DNA of 64,000 nt, from contig CAIQIA010000011.1 in assembly GCA_903871775.1 (NCBI GenBank), positions 1 through 64,000 on the forward strand, given 5' to 3'. Numbering within the stretch: the stretch's first letter is position 1; each line of letters opens with the position of its first letter. This stretch comes from an uncultured cyanobacterium. Lineage in GTDB: Bacteria; Cyanobacteriota; Cyanobacteriia; PCC-6307; Cyanobiaceae. This document shows positions 1-5,993 of the stretch, one piece after another. Below the pieces are notes generated by a model. It saw only the letters and a program-made list of their open reading frames with translations, ran no database searches and was not told where the DNA came from. Position numbers and translations under genes: made by a program.

Positions 1-1
1 C

Positions 2-73
2 ACGGGCCGTGGCTCCGATGACGGAACCGCGACCGGATGGGCCGTCGATGACGACGACGAGGCCCCCTTCTGA
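2..73 (+). CDS. C-terminal tail of an SSB-like protein (partial, cut by window edge)
   Basis: The frame starting at base 2 is open from the window edge to a TGA at 71-73 and encodes 23 residues ending in the acidic tip DDDDEAPF. Bacterial single-stranded-DNA-binding proteins end in a similar acidic tail closing with Pro-Phe, which docks repair and replication partners. The stop overlaps the ATG of the next gene (TGATG), as in the other junctions of this run, which supports real coding. Only the tail is visible, so SSB identity is an inference from the tip; another phage or plasmid DNA-metabolism protein with an SSB-type tip is possible. The OB-fold would lie outside the window. Confidence 0.5.
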   Translation, partial: TGRGSDDGTATGWAVDDDDEAPF

Positions 74-339
74 TGGGCGTCACCAGCAGCCGGGGCGGTG
101 GGGGCCGCCCCCAGCTGCCGGCCTTCTGCCGCACACGCCGGCCCACCACCGTGGCGGTCACACCCAGCAGCCTCGTCGGGCTGCGTGGCTTGGTGCTGCT
201 GGGGCTCCTCTTTCAGCTCAGCACCCTGCTGCTGCTGCTCGCCGGGCCGGTTTCGCCGCGGCCCGGGATCAGTGCCAACACCGCCATTCGCTCCGCCGTC
301 GCCGGTGGGAGTTCAGCCACACCGCTGTCAGACCGATGA
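73..339 (+). CDS. small membrane protein, unknown function
   Basis: Encodes 88 residues. The N-terminal 30 residues are basic (RGGGGR, RTRR); one strongly hydrophobic Leu-rich segment at about residues 34-58 looks like a single transmembrane helix, followed by a polar Ser/Ala-rich tail. Its ATG overlaps the stop of the SSB-like tail (TGATG at 71-75) and its stop overlaps the ATG of the KilA-N gene (ATGA at 336-339), so it sits in a translationally coupled run. I recognise no family. A holin-like or membrane-anchored accessory role would be a guess. The two perfect overlaps are the main reason to treat it as a gene rather than chance. Confidence 0.5.
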   Translation: MGVTSSRGGGGRPQLPAFCRTRRPTTVAVTPSSLVGLRGLVLLGLLFQLSTLLLLLAGPVSPRPGISANTAIRSAVAGGSSATPLSDR

Positions 340-1136
340 ACACCACAACCACCGGCTCCTTTCCTGTCAGTCCTCTCGCCTCGATGGATCACCCCGCTCT
401 GGTCTCCCGTTCCTGGAACGGCACTCCGATTTCTCGGCGCACCACCGATGGCTACGTCAATGCCACAGCTATGTGCAGGGCCAACGGCAAGCAATGGTCC
501 AAGTACCGAGAAAGCGACCGCTGCCAGACCTATCTCGATGCCCTGGCTGAAACCTCCGAAATTCGGATGTTTGACCTGATCGAGTCCCGCCAGGGCCAGG
601 GCGGCGGCACTTGGGTCCATCCCCAGGTCGCGGTCGACCTCGCCCGCTGGATCAGCGCACCGTTCGCGGTGTGGATGGACGGCTGGTTCCTGGAAAGCAT
701 CCAGCAGGCTCAGCCCGCTCCTGTAGACACGCCCGCACCTCGGCTCAGGGAGGCCGAGGTGATCGCTTTGGTGGAGCGCAGCATTGGCTTGTTCGAGCGG
801 CTGGGTGGACTGGATCAGCGCGACCAGCTCCTGTTCAAGGACATCGTCCGCAGCAACGTCCTCACTGCCAGTTCAGGACTGCTGCCCGGCACCCCCGCCG
901 ACGACGAACTGACTCTCAGCGATGCCTGGCTGGAGGTGTTCCAGGAAGTGCTGCCGCGTGCCAAGTACCGCTCGGCCGGGATGCTGGTGGCAGAGGCCTA
1001 CCGGACAGACTTTGGCCAGGAGCCGCCGCTTCGCCAGCAGTTCGTTGACGGGGCCCCGCGTCAGGTCAAGAGCTACCGACGCTCCTGGCTGATTGAGACC
1101 CTCAAGCGCTTCCGCGCCCAGCTGGCAGGAGGCTGA
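336..1136 (+). CDS. KilA-N domain protein
   Basis: Encodes 266 residues from the ATG at 336. A KilA-N DNA-binding domain spans roughly residues 25-122, with GYVNATAMCRANGK near 39-52, the middle WSKYRESD motif, and the closing WVHPQVAVDLARWISAPFA block near 93-112. KilA-N proteins occur in phages and mobile elements and bind DNA; many are antirepressor-like or of unknown role. The C-terminal 130 residues are helical and charged and match nothing I know. The frame is open upstream to base 9, but that extension is Pro/Arg/His-rich and out of frame with the small membrane gene, so 336 is preferred. The stop overlaps the next ATG (TGATG). Confidence 0.8.
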   Translation: MNTTTTGSFPVSPLASMDHPALVSRSWNGTPISRRTTDGYVNATAMCRANGKQWSKYRESDRCQTYLDALAETSEIRMFDLIESRQGQGGGTWVHPQVAVDLARWISAPFAVWMDGWFLESIQQAQPAPVDTPAPRLREAEVIALVERSIGLFERLGGLDQRDQLLFKDIVRSNVLTASSGLLPGTPADDELTLSDAWLEVFQEVLPRAKYRSAGMLVAEAYRTDFGQEPPLRQQFVDGAPRQVKSYRRSWLIETLKRFRAQLAGG

Positions 1137-1372
1137 TGGACACCACCACAACGCCAACCCGCCAGCGGGTCTGGGTCACAACAGCAGAAGCCTGTGAAGC
1201 ACTCGGTATGAGCCGTGAAACCCTCCGCCAGCTGCGGCTGCGGGGGGTGTTGCAAGCCGGCAAGCACTATCGACGCTGGGGCTGCACCCAGGGTCGGGGG
1301 CCCCTGCAGTGGCACCTGGAGAACGTTGAGGCCACGATCACCGCCTGGAGCAAAAAGAATCTGGGGAGATGA
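1136..1372 (+). CDS. small HTH protein, excisionase-like
   Basis: Encodes 78 residues. A MerR/excisionase-type helix-turn-helix is visible at about residues 14-42 (TTAEACEALGMSRETLRQL, then a GVLQAGKHY wing). Such small proteins in tyrosine-recombinase islands often serve as recombination directionality factors or local repressors. It overlaps the KilA-N stop and ends the rightward operon. Its first residues (MDTTTT) resemble those of the KilA-N protein (MNTTTT). Excisionase function is inferred from size, HTH type and an integrase 2 kb away; a transcription regulator is the alternative. Confidence 0.65.
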   Translation: MDTTTTPTRQRVWVTTAEACEALGMSRETLRQLRLRGVLQAGKHYRRWGCTQGRGPLQWHLENVEATITAWSKKNLGR

Positions 1373-1445
1373 TGTAACAATTAACCCTTATCCTTGCTGA
1401 CGACTCCGGTAGAGGACTCTTAACGGGATGTCTTGGCCGGATCCA

Positions 1446-1649
1446 TCAGTTGGCGCGATCCTGCCTCCACTTGGCCACTGAAACCGCAATTGTTGCGCCT
1501 ACGGCTGTGACCGCGAGACCAGTCAGGCCAAAGAATGCACCGCTGGCTGCTGCTCCCAAGATAAGGGCGGTTTTCGCATTCCTCTCGATCGCGCCTTTGC
1601 GAAGTGATCGGCGAATCCGTTGATATTCTTCGCTGTCAGGGAGGCTCAT
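1446..1649 (-). CDS. small glycine/alanine-rich membrane protein, third gene of island cassette
   Basis: Encodes 67 residues starting MSLPDSEEY. The N-terminal 27 residues are charged; residues about 28-60 form a hydrophobic Gly/Ala-rich segment (ALILGAAASGAFFGLTGLA), long enough for one helix or a hairpin, with small-residue spacing of the glycine-zipper kind. The ATG at 1649 lies four bases after the TAA of the upstream gene, typical of a coupled operon; a longer in-frame start at 1718 would overlap that gene by 65 bases and is less likely. No family recognised. Confidence 0.55.
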   Translation of the reverse strand: MSLPDSEEYQRIRRSLRKGAIERNAKTALILGAAASGAFFGLTGLAVTAVGATIAVSVAKWRQDRAN

Positions 1650-1653
1650 TTTG

Positions 1654-2463
1654 TTAATAGTCGCTGTGGACTGGAATGGGAACTCGATAGGCAACTGCTT
1701 GCTGGCCCTCGATCTCAATTGCTATGGGTTCAGCGTGGTGGACAAATGAATCGGCATACTTGTCCATCTCAATCGCCTGTTCTTTAGTGATCTTGCGTAT
1801 ACTTTCTAGCCTGATGGCGCTATCCGGCGCGGGATAGAGTTGATTGGCAAGAATCATGAAGTCATCCTGCTCAAACGTGTCCACCATTGCTTGTCGGCTG
1901 TCGTCTTGGAGGAAGCCACGAGCATGCTGATGCGCAAGGCCCAGTGGGACTAGATAGTCACCCCTGGGGCCCTGGTGATGATTAAAGATTAAAGGGGTTT
2001 GCCATCCCTCGCTGTACGCGATCACCCTTGATCGGGCTTGGCCTATCCGGCTTGCCAGTTCCATTGGCGATCCTGCAGTAACTATCCAGGCAGCCTTGCA
2101 CTTCTCTAGGAACTCCATTTGTTCGCGTGAGGCCACTTGGTGTCCAAGGCCTCCCAGGTTTGAAAAGGCTAGACCCATAAATACATCGCCGACATCGAAT
2201 CCGTCGCCTAGACCGAGCAGTCCTCCAATGATGGCCCCACCAATTCTCCAGGCCATCTGCTCGTCTTTGATTCGACGCTTCTCTTTTTCGACAATGGCCT
2301 GGAGGACGTCTTTTGATTGAAACGCATGGCCATTCTTTGCAAGCTGGACAAACTCAAAAGATTCGGGCACTGATGATGCCATTGGCTGCGTGTCGGAAGT
2401 GGTGGAGGAGCCCGCGCTGGGAGGGTTCAGTGATAGTTGGATGCTTTCGCTGAAGTCATTCAC
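1654..2463 (-). CDS. unknown 269-residue protein with glycine-rich hydrophobic segment
   Basis: The N-terminal 35 residues are Ser/Pro-rich and probably disordered; a charged KEKRRIKDEQ stretch precedes a Gly-rich hydrophobic region at about 72-108 (WRIGGAIIGGLLGLGDGF, then FMGLAFSNLGGLG). The remaining 160 residues look soluble. The glycine spacing resembles glycine-zipper segments that pack in membranes or form oligomers. Second gene of a leftward cassette, 37 bases after the metallopeptidase stop and 4 bases before the 67-residue gene. Base composition is far below that of the host core (25 of 60 G+C at 1741-1800), consistent with transfer. No known family recognised. Confidence 0.6.
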   Translation of the reverse strand: MNDFSESIQLSLNPPSAGSSTTSDTQPMASSVPESFEFVQLAKNGHAFQSKDVLQAIVEKEKRRIKDEQMAWRIGGAIIGGLLGLGDGFDVGDVFMGLAFSNLGGLGHQVASREQMEFLEKCKAAWIVTAGSPMELASRIGQARSRVIAYSEGWQTPLIFNHHQGPRGDYLVPLGLAHQHARGFLQDDSRQAMVDTFEQDDFMILANQLYPAPDSAIRLESIRKITKEQAIEMDKYADSFVHHAEPIAIEIEGQQAVAYRVPIPVHSDY

Positions 2464-2500
2464 TCTTGTATCGGTATTTAGGTCGAAGATAGGGGGTAGA

Positions 2501-3061
2501 TCACCCGAGAAGACCCTCTAGAAGCGGAGCATCCAAAGACGCCTGGAGGCTCGCTTCCAGTGGATCCAGGCCTTCTGCCACGTAGGAGACGGCAAGCTGC
2601 TGTTCAATTGGAGAAGCGGCTCGCATTAAAGTACTTTCGGGATTGTCAAGAGCATGTTCGGTGCTGTGGGCCTCCAGCTCCAATGCTTGGGTTCTTGGGT
2701 CAGATGTGGTGTAAGCAGTGCTAACAGCTTGAAATCCCTCAGCATTTACAGGAAGTCCAAGCGGCGACATTGATGAGTTGTCTAGACCATCTATCTCGTC
2801 TTGAAGCACATGGATGAACTCGTGCTCAAATGTCTCTATAAGCTGAATATTGTCAGACAGAGCAGGTGCGCCTATGGTCAGGACATTTGTTTCTGGATTA
2901 TAAGTCCCATACGCTCCCTGGAGTGAAGGCTCTAATACGATTTCGACGCCTTTGTCCCAGCAAGAGCGTATATAGCTCTCGATTGTTGAAAGCCCTTCTG
3001 AGCTCATGCCGTTGGCTCCAAGGCCAATGAGAAATTCATCCAATTCAGCACTTGTTTTCAT
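2501..3061 (-). CDS. HExxH zincin-type metallopeptidase of genomic island
   Basis: Encodes 186 residues. The motif FEHEFIHVLQDE carries HEFIH at residues 80-84, the classic zinc-binding and catalytic HExxH. An ELEAH segment at 128-132 offers a third ligand (Glu128 or Glu130), the arrangement seen in gluzincins such as ImmA/IrrE-like or DUF4157-like peptidases. No signal peptide is apparent, so it should act in the cytoplasm or be delivered by another route. First gene of a three-gene leftward cassette in low-GC island DNA. An AAGGG lies six bases before the ATG. Peptidase activity is strongly suggested by the motif; substrate and role (toxin, regulator cleavage, defence) are unknown. Confidence 0.7.
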   Translation of the reverse strand: MKTSAELDEFLIGLGANGMSSEGLSTIESYIRSCWDKGVEIVLEPSLQGAYGTYNPETNVLTIGAPALSDNIQLIETFEHEFIHVLQDEIDGLDNSSMSPLGLPVNAEGFQAVSTAYTTSDPRTQALELEAHSTEHALDNPESTLMRAASPIEQQLAVSYVAEGLDPLEASLQASLDAPLLEGLLG

Positions 3062-3085
3062 TTAGAACCCTTGAGCGTTGCTTCC

Positions 3086-3094
3086 TTATATATT
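3086..3094 (-). promoter_or_regulatory. candidate -10 region for the metallopeptidase cassette
   Basis: The gap 3062-3300 holds no gene. An AT-rich run reading TATATAA on the minus strand lies about 25 bases before the ATG of the metallopeptidase gene. No good -35 hexamer at normal spacing is visible, so this is only a candidate. The rest of the gap shows nothing I can name. Confidence 0.3.
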
Positions 3095-3300
3095 TCCTAG
3101 CACGGTCGTGGTAGGGCTGCAGTCGCAAGGCGCTTCACTCGGTATAAGCGTTTCAAATCAGTCGCTGCCTGGGTTGACCATGCCTCTGAGCCATGCCGCG
3201 ACGTGATCTGCCGAGGACGGGGCTGGTTTGCGGGGGCGGTCGACCGAGCGAGATAGGTTCCCGTCGTATGCGGGGAGTCGGTTTTGAGGGGGTGGTGAGC

Positions 3301-4545
3301 TCAGCTTGCCTGGAGGCGCTGCTCCGCCTTGGTGAAGGCGTCATCCACCACGTCATCCCCGCACCAGCGGCTGTAGGCCGCCAGGTGGGTCTGGACGCTG
3401 TGGCCCATGGCCGCGGCCACCACCTTGGGTGGTAGGTCGCAGATCACGTGGGCGCGGTGGGCGTAGCCGTGCCGGCAGGAGTAGGGCACGAGCTTCTCGC
3501 CCTTGGCTTCGTACTCCTGCCGCAGCTGGTTCCAGAGAGGGCGCCGGTGCAGGTACTGCCTGATGTCGTTGCCGCAGAAGCCGGAACGCATCGGAGGGAG
3601 ATCGGCAGGGCAGAACTGGTCGGCCAGCTTCCAGTTCGCTGCCCAGTCATCGCAGGGCAGGAGACGCAGGGCTCGAGGCTTGGTCTTGCCGCGGGAGGCC
3701 ACCTTTTCATAGGTGCACCACAGGCGCCCATCGCGCAGCTGCAGGTGCTGGAGCTCCTCGGGGCGCAATCCATAGGCGGCCATCAGCTGGAAAGCGAGTC
3801 GCCAACGCGGGTCGGGCAGGGCCTGTACCAACGCCAGGATGTGGCCCACTTCGAGGGGGGTGGTAATCGCTTTCGCGGAGCGTGACCGCCCCACGAAGGA
3901 GCTCAGGTCGGTTGGCGGCTCCCACCTGGCTGCTGCGAGTTCGCCCTGGGCCACCGCCCAGCGGAGCAGGGCAGAGGTGGCCTGCATCTGAATCTGCCGG
4001 GTGCGGCCCCCGGGTTTATCGGCCCAGTGCAGGGTGAGCCGATCCAGCAGCTGGGTGGCGCTTTGGGGCGGGTGACGGCTGACGAAGGCATCCAGCACAT
4101 GCTTCATGTGGTGGCGATGCACCCTTGTCCAGGTCGACTCCTTGATCTCGCCAGTGCGGATTTTGTACTCTCGATACCGCTCAATCAGCACATTCCAGTC
4201 TGTTTGCTGTTCAGAAACTGCCTTTTGGGTGTCAGAAGTCCTGGTATCTGATTCGCTTCCTGATGTATAGGTGATTGTCTTTGCCGCCTGTTCTGGTTCT
4301 ATTCCGCTGCTGAAGTCGTCATAGATCTTGCAAACAGCTGCGCCAATCTTCTTGGCGTTGTCGAAGTGCCAGGGGATCGGAAGTTGTATCTGACGCCGCT
4401 TGCCGCCGCCCGCTTTGGCGGTGATGTTGAGCCTGGCGAAGCCTCGGTGCTCTGTGAGCGCCCAGCCCCTTGGACATCCCTTGCGGGACAAGGCGTGAGC
4501 GGTTTCGACGCGGATGGCGATCTCCCAGGGGGCTGCCTCAGCCAT
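3301..4545 (-). CDS. tyrosine recombinase (integrase) of tRNA-Gly island
   Basis: Encodes 414 residues. Tyrosine-recombinase catalytic residues are visible: Arg261 in AAYGLRPEEL, basic residues near 287-291, Arg358 in YSCRHG, His382 in AMGHS and the nucleophile Tyr391 in LAAYSRW. The first position of the usual HxxR box is Tyr (YSCR). Residues about 117-210 look like the SAM-like core-binding domain; the N-terminal 60 residues resemble an arm-binding region. The gene starts 127 bases from the 3' end of tRNA-Gly(CCC) and points away from it, a common arrangement for an integrase at the attL end of a tRNA-integrated element. It should catalyse integration and excision of the island extending leftward. 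Confidence 0.9.
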   Translation of the reverse strand: MAEAAPWEIAIRVETAHALSRKGCPRGWALTEHRGFARLNITAKAGGGKRRQIQLPIPWHFDNAKKIGAAVCKIYDDFSSGIEPEQAAKTITYTSGSESDTRTSDTQKAVSEQQTDWNVLIERYREYKIRTGEIKESTWTRVHRHHMKHVLDAFVSRHPPQSATQLLDRLTLHWADKPGGRTRQIQMQATSALLRWAVAQGELAAARWEPPTDLSSFVGRSRSAKAITTPLEVGHILALVQALPDPRWRLAFQLMAAYGLRPEELQHLQLRDGRLWCTYEKVASRGKTKPRALRLLPCDDWAANWKLADQFCPADLPPMRSGFCGNDIRQYLHRRPLWNQLRQEYEAKGEKLVPYSCRHGYAHRAHVICDLPPKVVAAAMGHSVQTHLAAYSRWCGDDVVDDAFTKAEQRLQAS

Positions 4546-4568
4546 GTGAGAAGGTCTGTGAGAAGGTC
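4545..4568. repeat. perfect 12-bp tandem repeat at the integrase start codon
   Basis: The plus strand carries two adjacent copies of TGTGAGAAGGTC (4545-4556 and 4557-4568). On the integrase strand this reads GACCTTCTCACA twice, and the final A is the first base of the integrase ATG. A tandem repeat exactly at the start of int could be an operator or an arm-type site for Int or the HTH protein; chance duplication is the alternative. Confidence 0.55.
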
Positions 4569-4623
4569 GGCCCTACAGCCTGGCACGGCCTGTCAGGAGC
4601 GGTCAGCCGCTGGCAGCCTTAAA

Positions 4624-4640
4624 GCCAGTGCCAGACTGGC
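4624..4640 (-). terminator. hairpin downstream of tRNA-Gly(CCC), terminator-like
   Basis: A perfect 6-bp inverted repeat (GCCAGT at 4624-4629, ACTGGC at 4635-4640) with a 5-base loop lies 32 bases beyond the tRNA 3' end. Read leftward it is followed by TTTAAGG, read rightward by TTTTC, so it could terminate transcription in either direction. It would insulate the tRNA from the integrase. Confidence 0.45.
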
Positions 4641-4671
4641 TTTTCGGGGGATTTCTCAGTCCTGGACTAGA

Positions 4672-4705
4672 AGCGGGTGACCGGACTCGAACCGGCGACG
4701 TTCAG
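4672..4705. other. predicted attachment-site region (3' half of tRNA-Gly)
   Basis: Tyrosine integrases usually recombine within the anticodon-to-acceptor half of a tRNA gene, restoring it on integration. The integrase beside this 3' end makes the T-arm/acceptor segment the likely attL core. I found no second copy in bases 1-4600, so the other boundary must lie left of the window if this is right. Confidence 0.35.
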
Positions 4706-4743
4706 CTTGGGAAGCTGACATTCTACCACTGAATTACACCCGC
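4672..4743 (-). tRNA. tRNA-Gly (anticodon CCC)
   Basis: Reverse-strand cloverleaf of 72 nt: acceptor stem GCGGGTG pairs with CACCCGC, followed by a T discriminator. The anticodon stem TCAGC/GCTGA closes a TTCCCAA loop with anticodon CCC, decoding GGG. The T-arm carries GGTTCGAGTCC. No CCA is encoded. The integrase gene lies just beyond the 3' end, so this gene is the probable attachment target of the island. Confidence 0.95.
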
Positions 4744-4799
4744 ATTCCTCAACCCTAGCAGCGGGCCTCCGATGGTGCCGGAGACCCGCTGCCCCTGGG

Positions 4800-5993
4800 T
4801 CAGCCCTGCTGCAGCACCGCCGCCGCCGCGGCCACCCCGGCCCCCGGCTGGGCGGGCGGCCGGCCGAGTTCCACCAGCGCCCCTTCAATGGCGGCCACAG
4901 CCACCAGCACGTCGCGATCCGCCACAAAGCCCAGGTGACCGATGCGGAACACCTTGCCCTTGAGATGGTCCTGGCCGCCCGCCAGCAGGATGTCGTAGCG
5001 GCTCTTGACCACCTTGCGCACGGCCTCGGCATCCAGGCCATCGGGGGCCACGGCGGTGATGGCGGGACTGCTGCATTCAGCGGAGGCATAGAGCGGCAGG
5101 CCGATGGCCTCCATGGCCGCACGGGTGGCGCGGCGATGGCGGTCATGGCGGGCGAAGATCGCCTCCAGGCCTTCCTCCTGCATGATCGCCATCGAGGCCT
5201 CGAGGGCGAAGTAGAGGTTCACCGCCGGCGTAAAGGGGTTGCTGTTGTCTTCAGCCGCTTTTCTGTACTTCGCCAGATCGAGATAGAACTTCGGCAGGTC
5301 CGATCGCTCCCGGGCGGCCCACGCCCGTTCGCCCATGGCCACGAAGCCGAGGCCGGGGGGGATCATGTAGCCCTTCTGGCTGCCCGAACCCACCACATCA
5401 AGGCCCCAGGCGTCAACGGGCACCGAGGTCGCCCCCAGGCTGGTGACCGCATCCACGATGATCAGCGCCTCGCCATGGGCCTTGACGTGGCGGTTGATGG
5501 TATCCAGGTCGTTGATCACCCCGGTGGAGGTCTCGGAATGGGTGAGGATCACCGCCTTGATCGCCTTCTCCCGGTCGGCCTCGAGGGCCTCGCGGAACGC
5601 CTCCGGATCCAACGGCTGGCCCCACTCGGCGCGGATGGTGTGAACGTCGAGGCCATAGGCCTTCGCCACCTTCACCCAGCGTTCACCGAACTTGCCGTTG
5701 TCACCGCACAGCACCCGATCACCGCGGCTGAGCACGTTGATGATGCCGGCCTCCATGGCCGCCGTGCCGCTGCCGGCCAGCACCAGCACCGATCCGCGGG
5801 TCTGGTGCAGCCACTGCAGCTGCTCGGTGGTGCGGGCGACGATCTTCTGGAAATCGGCGCTGCGATGGCCGATGGGATGACGGCCCAGGGCGACCAGCGC
5901 CGACTCCGGCACGGGCGTGGGTCCGGGGATCATCAGCTGCAACTTGTCCTTCATGCCCGCGATCGGGTCGCCCCCGGCTGGTGGATCATTCAC
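4800..5993 (-). CDS. class V aminotransferase (alanine/serine-glyoxylate type)
   Basis: Encodes 397 residues of a PLP-dependent class V aminotransferase. The N-terminal LMIPGPTPVPE signature, substrate-side GSGTAAMEA near 74-82, PLP-ring Asp181 (IIVDAVTS) and the Schiff-base Lys207 in GSGSQKGYM are visible. The closest known group is alanine/serine-glyoxylate aminotransferase, once called the soluble hydrogenase 42-kDa subunit in cyanobacteria; it should recycle photorespiratory glyoxylate to glycine. The chosen ATG has AAGGTGA directly in front; an alternative ATG at 5954 (MKDKLQLM) fits family length about equally well. The Ala-rich C-terminal tail is unusual. It is transcribed away from cbiD. 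Confidence 0.88.
   Translation of the reverse strand: MNDPPAGGDPIAGMKDKLQLMIPGPTPVPESALVALGRHPIGHRSADFQKIVARTTEQLQWLHQTRGSVLVLAGSGTAAMEAGIINVLSRGDRVLCGDNGKFGERWVKVAKAYGLDVHTIRAEWGQPLDPEAFREALEADREKAIKAVILTHSETSTGVINDLDTINRHVKAHGEALIIVDAVTSLGATSVPVDAWGLDVVGSGSQKGYMIPPGLGFVAMGERAWAARERSDLPKFYLDLAKYRKAAEDNSNPFTPAVNLYFALEASMAIMQEEGLEAIFARHDRHRRATRAAMEAIGLPLYASAECSSPAITAVAPDGLDAEAVRKVVKSRYDILLAGGQDHLKGKVFRIGHLGFVADRDVLVAVAAIEGALVELGRPPAQPGAGVAAAAAVLQQG

What the first reader, a model, noticed from the sequence alone, without database searches (positions are those of the whole stretch)
2..1372. SSB-type tail and KilA-N in a stop/start-overlapping run
Seen: a 23-residue open end with DDDDEAPF, then three genes each joined by a TGATG or ATGA overlap. 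Known: SSB tails end in acidic-Pro-Phe. Inference: an element-encoded SSB is cotranslated with a membrane protein, a KilA-N protein and a small HTH, perhaps the replication/regulation half of a phage-satellite-like or tycheposon-like island.
Basis: partly seen in the sequence, partly recalled or inferred. Interest (0 to 1): 0.6.

Follow-up and report, generated by a model that had tools for sequence, protein, structure and literature searches.

The report
Early operon of freshwater temperate cyanophage
The stretch is the end of a dormant virus (prophage) in a freshwater picocyanobacterium, holding its single-strand-DNA-binding protein tail, a small membrane protein, a KilA-N regulator and a helix-turn-helix protein; it matters because this virus group turns out to be common in a lineage long thought to carry few prophages, and because its regulator appears to swap its DNA-recognition segment like an exchangeable part.

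Summary
In detail: an acidic ...DDDDEAPF tail (2-73), then an 88-aa protein, a KilA-N protein and an HTH_17 protein, joined by TGATG/ATGA/TGATG overlaps. The window is the first 64 kb of its contig, so nothing lies to its left. A circular 49.9-kb viral contig has the same run with the complete upstream gene, whose last 23 residues are identical. That gene is a gp2.5-like SSB (PHROG E 6e-15; only PDB sequence hit is T7 gp2.5). Integrase and an attP identical to window 4670-4716 are on that contig, and its relatives carry terminase and portal genes. So this is the integrase end of a temperate phage at tRNA-Gly(CCC), not a satellite or tycheposon. The rest of this copy is absent from its assembly. 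TerL relatives occur in 33 of 130 good genomes of the host family. This suggests a recombining specificity cassette; its target and function are inferred, and no cognate operator was found.

The parts
2..73 (+). 3' end of the gp2.5-like SSB gene (acidic DDDDEAPF tail), open at the contig edge
   Evidence: identical to the last 23 residues of the full 197-aa gene in L071; phrog_112 E 5.8e-15 for that full gene
73..339 (+). 88-aa small protein, conserved PQLPAFCRTRR motif followed by one hydrophobic stretch; constant member of the operon
   Evidence: alignment A3, dN/dS 0.32 in core, 37/201 genomes; no Pfam/PHROG match
336..1136 (+). KilA-N regulator (266 aa)
   Evidence: PF04383 E 5.3e-20; phrog_129 transcriptional regulator E 2e-22; model matches APSES domains Mbp1/PCG2, best E 0.012
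492..608 (+). KilA-N recognition segment (residues 53-91), the part exchanged between proteins
1136..1372 (+). HTH_17 (AlpA/excisionase-like) protein, 78 aa
   Evidence: PF12728 E 5.8e-8; weak excisionase PHROGs
1446..1718 (-). small ORF with hydrophobic segment (uncertain gene), cargo slot
1654..2463 (-). 269-aa protein of unknown function, cargo slot between HTH and integrase
   Evidence: no relative in viral contigs
2501..3061 (-). 186-aa protein with HEFIH motif, metallopeptidase-like, cargo slot
   Evidence: weak DUF6782/SprT and phrog_3541/phrog_87 matches
3301..4545 (-). tyrosine recombinase (integrase)
   Evidence: phrog_1 E 1.3e-20; 96% identical to the integrase of circular phage contig G201
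4670..4716 (+). 47-bp attachment core (right attachment site, overlaps the 3' part of the tRNA)
   Evidence: identical to attP of G201 and to both att copies of the G101 prophage
4672..4743 (-). tRNA-Gly(CCC), integration target
   Evidence: ARAGORN, Rfam tRNA
4686..4804 (.). 119 bp shared exactly with the end of contig C18, which carries the same site without this element

Best explanation
Window 1-4716 is the integrase-proximal end of a temperate tailed phage (about 45-50 kb when complete) integrated in tRNA-Gly(CCC) of a freshwater Cyanobium-type picocyanobacterium. The four overlapping genes are the distal part of its early operon: SF2 helicase, VRR-NUC nuclease, an XRE-like protein, a protein sharing a domain with the phage's Rad52, a ribbon-helix-helix-like protein, SSB, small membrane-like protein, KilA-N, HTH. 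Likely working: on induction the operon is transcribed and its last genes are translationally coupled. The gp2.5-like SSB coats ssDNA and, through its acidic -F tail, recruits the phage's primase-helicase, helicase and nuclease. The KilA-N protein is a DNA-binding regulator, most likely an anti-repressor, because its slot is filled by a BRO-N/Ant anti-repressor in sister phages. The HTH_17 protein at the operon's end, facing the convergent integrase gene, is most likely the excisionase or integration regulator, which would tie replication to excision. Shown: gene identities, order, junctions, att sites, circular form, conservation. Inferred: co-transcription, coupling, anti-repressor and excisionase roles, tail interactions.
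For: Full SSB gene in relatives: phrog_112 E 6e-15; the only PDB sequence hit among 177,635 is T7 gp2.5 1JE5, E 4e-4, full length; fold search top hits 1JE5 (5e-7), DUF2815, Enc34 SSB, on a low-confidence model. Conserved operon order in more than 13 loci. Circular contig G201 with 99-bp terminal repeat and single attP. Prophages with 47- and 46-bp att repeats spanning 48.8 and 45.2 kb. TerL phrog_38 E 6e-74, portal E 2e-18, scaffold E 4e-13 in G101, with homologues in G201. Slot exchange with fixed junctions. BRO-N occupant matches anti-repressor Ant families, E 1e-12. TerL relatives in 40/201 family genomes, 33/130 of good quality.
Against: In the window's own assembly the body of this copy is missing: TerL, helicase, primase and left arm are not found, and the att core occurs only at C11 and C18. 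So completeness of this copy is unproven. No promoter or terminator was supported above shuffles. KilA-N function rests on slot analogy only. Excisionase matches are weak.
Confidence: 0.87

Rival explanations
1. Phage satellite or tycheposon: a small mobile island with its own replication genes that borrows a helper phage's particles.
For: tRNA integration, tyrosine recombinase, replication genes, variable cargo; satellites also carry such genes.
Against: Complete relatives of the same operon carry TerL, portal and scaffold genes within the same att boundaries and are 45-50 kb.
Confidence: 0.06
2. Decayed prophage: only the integrase end remains in this host, as in the host's other copies, and the SSB gene is truncated.
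For: The same genome holds several decayed copies (C24, C18, C15 end, C3 start); TerL and left arm absent from the assembly.
Against: The contig breaks inside an intact reading frame; the SSB tail, KilA-N, HTH and integrase are 94-100% identical to the circular phage, the small protein 88%, and all frames are intact. Contig C18 shows the site without this element, sharing exactly 119 bp (a k-mer-like overlap), which suggests a dropped, polymorphic insertion rather than a fixed remnant.
Confidence: 0.25
3. KilA-N here is a BstA-like abortive-infection protein whose swappable segment sets cognate self-immunity, rather than an anti-repressor.
For: BstA has a KilA-N-like N-terminal domain, is carried by prophages, and its variants have cognate aba DNA elements inside the bstA locus (PMC8585504). 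The KilA-N domain matches the BstA PHROG E 1e-7. No separate co-varying operator was seen.
Against: The match covers only residues 24-114, the shared domain; no C-terminal BstA homology; the gene sits in the replication operon and is replaced by BRO-N/Ant in sister phages.
Confidence: 0.2
4. The DDDDEAPF end is a chance acidic tail on an unrelated protein.
For: Only 23 residues are visible in the window.
Against: Identical tail on a full gp2.5-like protein in L071; tail conserved in about 20 homologues while the linker before it varies.
Confidence: 0.01

Closest known systems
T7 gp2.5 / DUF2815 / Enc34 SSB (phrog_112)
   Same: Full-length profile match, OB fold, acidic C-terminal tail ending in F
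   Different: About 20% identity; sits in a primase-helicase/SF2-helicase operon of a temperate phage, not a T7-type replication module
Synechococcus phage S-SRP02 (freshwater cyanopodovirus)
   Same: Carries an integrase, a KilA-N protein (45% over 146 aa) and a homologous SSB (30%)
   Different: 42-kb podovirus with RNA polymerase; different gene order and packaging genes; no tRNA prophage form seen here
S-LBS1 (freshwater cyanosiphovirus with integrase)
   Same: Freshwater Synechococcus phage with integrase and lysogeny potential (PMC6157547)
   Different: A smaller siphovirus type without a shown prophage form. Here integrated, tandem and circular forms are seen. TerL of our group is nearest to S-CBS2, about 37%
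BstA prophage defence protein
   Same: KilA-N-like DNA-binding domain in a prophage protein; variant-specific DNA immunity (PMC8585504)
   Different: No C-terminal homology; different genomic setting
BRO-N/Ant phage anti-repressors
   Same: Occupies the same gene slot in sister phages with the same overlaps
   Different: Different N-terminal domain (BRO-N instead of KilA-N)

Membership tests
gp2.5-like SSB | Full-length homology to the family profile | tested here: met
   L071 gene residues 3-193, phrog_112 E 5.8e-15; 1JE5 E 4e-4. Done on the relative; the window holds only the last 23 residues
gp2.5-like SSB | OB fold | tested here: met
   AlphaFold model (mean pLDDT 55) finds 1JE5 E 5e-7, DUF2815, Enc34 SSB
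gp2.5-like SSB | Acidic C-terminal tail ending in F | tested here: met
   window 2-73 directly; conserved in relatives
gp2.5-like SSB | Binds ssDNA and replisome partners | not testable with these tools
   needs biochemistry
Temperate tailed phage | Own terminase, portal and head genes | tested here: met
   in relatives sharing this operon within att boundaries
Temperate tailed phage | Same genes present for the window's own copy | tested here: inconclusive
   not in the 27-contig assembly, whose contig breaks inside the element
Temperate tailed phage | Site-specific integration with att sites and circular form | tested here: met
   47-bp core at tRNA-Gly; attP in circular G201
Tycheposon / phage satellite | Tyrosine recombinase and tRNA integration | tested here: met
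Tycheposon / phage satellite | Lacks its own packaging and head genes | tested here: not met
   TerL, portal, scaffold in complete relatives
KilA-N domain proteins | KilA-N profile above curated cut-off | tested here: met
   71.7 bits vs 23.8
BstA | Homology across N- and C-terminal domains | tested here: not met
   match limited to residues 24-114
Excisionase (HTH_17/AlpA type) | HTH_17 fold | tested here: met
   33.3 bits vs 27
Excisionase (HTH_17/AlpA type) | Directs excisive recombination | not testable with these tools
   needs excision assay

The most novel reading that the evidence does not exclude
The KilA-N regulator of these phages carries a 39-residue recognition cassette (recognition helix plus wing) that is exchanged by recombination between phages as discrete alleles, so that a phage can change its regulatory or immunity specificity in one step while the rest of the protein and operon stay the same. 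A second part: sister phages replaced the gp2.5 SSB with an unrelated, so far undescribed protein family that keeps the slot, the junction and the acidic -PF tail, possibly a new kind of phage SSB.
Probability: 0.5. Interest if true: 0.72.

Novelty: new variant of a known kind. Interest (0 to 1): 0.57.

Why it matters
Lysogeny has been described as apparently rare in unicellular cyanobacteria, with no inducible prophage found in Synechococcus or Prochlorococcus isolates as of 2018 (PMC6157547). Here one phage lineage has terminase relatives in a quarter of good-quality genomes of the host family, with att-bounded prophages, tandem copies and a circular form; several hosts are named strains on which induction can be tried. 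The KilA-N cassette offers a natural set of specificity swaps in a widespread but poorly characterised viral DNA-binding domain.

Tried and rejected
Reading left of the window: impossible, contig starts there. Recovering the rest of the element in the host assembly with TerL, left-arm and replication-arm queries: absent. A KilA-N class-specific operator in the divergent RHH/helicase promoter or as class-specific k-mers in whole phages (only short 9-10-mers, no longer word): none convincing. A first unstandardised sliding-window test placed the strongest signal in the generally variable linker; after standardising columns the strongest block is residues 58-90 in the 30-column scan (68-90 and 40-90 with 20 and 40 columns), with 0 of 300 shuffles reaching it in each. 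Homology between the two SSB-slot families by profile comparison: none; the second has no Pfam, PHROG or PDB match. Cargo protein 1654-2463: no viral relative. Defence library: only a short weak KilA-N match. Close known phage by DNA: none.

Full report
1. What is there. The window is the first 64 kb of contig C11 (384 kb) of a 2.57-Mb, 27-contig picocyanobacterial assembly. Pfam gives KilA-N E 5e-20 and HTH_17 E 6e-8; the 88-aa protein has no family. To the right lie three minus-strand ORFs, a tyrosine recombinase (3301-4545, minus) and tRNA-Gly(CCC) 4672-4743. The element therefore has its integrase end here and runs off the left edge of the contig.

2. The missing left side. Relatives of the KilA-N protein were fetched from genomes and IMG/VR. 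The closest, L071 (IMG/VR 3300042360_000665, 99% in KilA-N), has the complete upstream gene; its last 23 residues equal window 2-70. That 197-aa protein matches phrog_112, Gp2.5-like ssDNA-binding protein, over residues 3-193 (E 5.8e-15). A profile of 20 homologues hits a single PDB sequence at E <= 1, T7 gp2.5 (1JE5, E 4e-4). A structure model of modest confidence (mean pLDDT 55) has 1JE5, a DUF2815 protein and the Enc34 SSB as its best matches. The acidic -F tail is kept in all 20 aligned homologues although the preceding linker varies in length and sequence.

3. What the element is. In more than 13 loci the same order recurs: primase-helicase (divergent), SF2 helicase, VRR-NUC, a 233-aa protein (XRE-like by eye), a 241-aa protein, a small ribbon-helix-helix-like protein, SSB, small membrane-like protein, KilA-N, HTH, variable cargo, convergent integrase, tRNA. 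L071 belongs to a 49.9-kb contig whose ends share 99 identical bases, i.e. a circular molecule, with one copy of the 47-bp core that also spans window 4670-4716. In the closed genome G101 two copies of that core bound 48.8 kb, and in G157 a 46-bp repeat at tRNA-Arg bounds 45.2 kb. The G101 prophage encodes a terminase large subunit (phrog_38 E 6e-74), a portal (E 2e-18) and a scaffold protein (E 4e-13), with homologues in G201, G157 and others. Integration sites are tRNA-Gly(CCC), tRNA-Gly(TCC), tRNA-Arg(TCT) and tRNA-Val(TAC). This is a temperate tailed phage lineage. The satellite/tycheposon reading fails because complete relatives carry their own packaging genes.

4. The window's own copy. 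TerL, the helicase/primase arm and the left arm are not in the host assembly. The att core occurs there twice: in C11 with the phage-type base (A) and at the end of C18 with G, next to an older decayed prophage. The last 119 bases of C18 are identical to window 4686-4804, the kind of overlap an assembler leaves where two paths meet. The likely reading is that both the occupied and unoccupied site were in the sequenced population and that the phage body was lost in assembly or binning. A strain mixture or a truncated copy is not excluded. Other copies or remnants lie at C24, C15, C3 and C18.

5. Frequency. In 201 sampled genomes of the host family, TerL relatives occur in 40 (33 of 130 of good quality), with three matches in closed G101 and eight in draft G147. 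The small membrane-like protein occurs in 37 (30 of 130), KilA-N in 22 (18 of 130). The literature at hand calls lysogeny apparently rare in unicellular cyanobacteria, with no inducible prophage in Synechococcus or Prochlorococcus isolates at that time (PMC6157547). I searched only an open-access library, so later reports may exist.

6. Fixed junctions, exchangeable genes. In sister phages the SSB slot holds a different protein (217 aa...EFADEEVPF) with no profile similarity to the gp2.5-like SSB and no match in Pfam, PHROGs, the PDB or annotated phages. The regulator slot holds a BRO-N protein that matches Ant anti-repressor families (E 1e-12), or nothing (L212). Nevertheless the SSB-slot/small-protein junction is TGATG in 36 of 37 distinct loci and the small-protein/regulator junction is ATGA in 31 of 31. 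Modules thus appear to be exchanged at conserved stop/start overlaps, and the small protein is the constant element between them. Its core is under purifying selection (dN/dS 0.32; 1.3 and 2.2 in the other frames).

7. KilA-N recognition cassette. Within the KilA-N domain, mean pairwise identity is about 0.9 before residue 49, falls to 0.55-0.6 at 67-84 and returns to 0.97-1.0 at 91-114. The dip coincides with the helices and hairpin that form the helix-turn-helix and wing of the model, which resembles the APSES domains of Mbp1 and PCG2 (E 0.012, probability 0.98). Segment and backbone do not track each other. Window vs L081: segment 95%, rest 57%. L052 vs L086: 98% vs 55%. L051 vs L091: 93% vs 57%. 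Conversely L088 vs L091: 39% vs 90%, and L078 vs L080: 36% vs 88%. In DNA, L052 and L086 are 97-100% identical across codons 53-92, including third positions, but only about 37-52% in the C-terminal part. A standardised block scan puts the strongest signal at residues 58-90 with a 30-column window (68-90 and 40-90 with 20 and 40 columns), reached in 0 of 300 column shuffles for each width. Between L047 and L072, 4.4 kb is 90% identical and the only low-identity windows are inside KilA-N, at the segment and in its C-terminal part. Sixty-two distinct sequences give 27 classes. This pattern is shown. That it changes DNA specificity is inferred from position, and no cognate site was found.

8. Mechanism. 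The most likely picture: induction switches on the early operon; SSB, the primase-helicase and helicase start replication; the KilA-N (or BRO-N) protein acts as anti-repressor or competitor-directed regulator with exchangeable specificity; the HTH_17 protein at the operon's end helps the convergently encoded integrase excise the prophage. Translational coupling by the overlaps would keep these products in proportion. Steps resting on homology: SSB, TerL, integrase, helicase, primase. Steps inferred from position only: anti-repressor, excisionase, coupling, tail interactions. The role of the small membrane-like protein is open; a membrane anchor for replication or superinfection exclusion are both possible.

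9. Verdict. Observation confirmed; the SSB and operon idea is right, the island class is wrong. As an object it is a new member of temperate tailed phages. The fixed-junction slot exchange and the KilA-N cassette make it a new variant.

Noticed in passing
L051:9049-9699; also L211-L216, L218, L221-L224: Protein family of 217 aa in the SSB slot with acidic -EEVPF tail and no match in Pfam, PHROGs, PDB or annotated phages; candidate new phage SSB family.
   Followed up: partly
L048 and L049 (contig NZ_JACVZV010000018.1): Two near-identical copies of the phage's right end about 56.1 kb apart, with an att core joined directly to a left arm after the first and tRNA-Gly after the second: a tandem double lysogen or assembly duplication.
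   Followed up: partly
window 4686-4804 and end of host contig C18 (L008:11277-11395): Exact 119-bp overlap at the integration site, with the unoccupied-site version on C18 differing by one base in the att core; hints at a mixed or excising population.
   Followed up: partly
L006 (host contig C24) 2574-4095: Decayed copy in which a deletion brought the start of VRR-NUC next to the SSB tail region, yet KilA-N (90%) and HTH frames are intact.
   Followed up: partly
L071:6185-6910 and L071:13327-14241: The 241-aa protein upstream of the SSB appears to share its C-terminal region with the phage's Rad52-family annealing protein (cross-matches).
   Followed up: partly
L060:501-2074 and L061:9147-10756: Two KilA-N genes in tandem, about 50% and 75% identical to the window's, in one phage.
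   Followed up: no
window 1446-3061: Cargo between HTH and integrase differs from phage to phage; here a 269-aa protein without known relatives and an HExxH metallopeptidase-like protein.
   Followed up: partly
G147 (apparently the same genome as NZ_JAGQCD, Cyanobium sp. Cruz-8D1): Eight TerL matches and five KilA-N copies of several recognition classes in one draft genome; a candidate poly-lysogen.
   Followed up: partly
L199:15065-15630 (host contig C7): ARAGORN reports a tmRNA-like gene with an unusual tag; probably a weak or false call.
   Followed up: no
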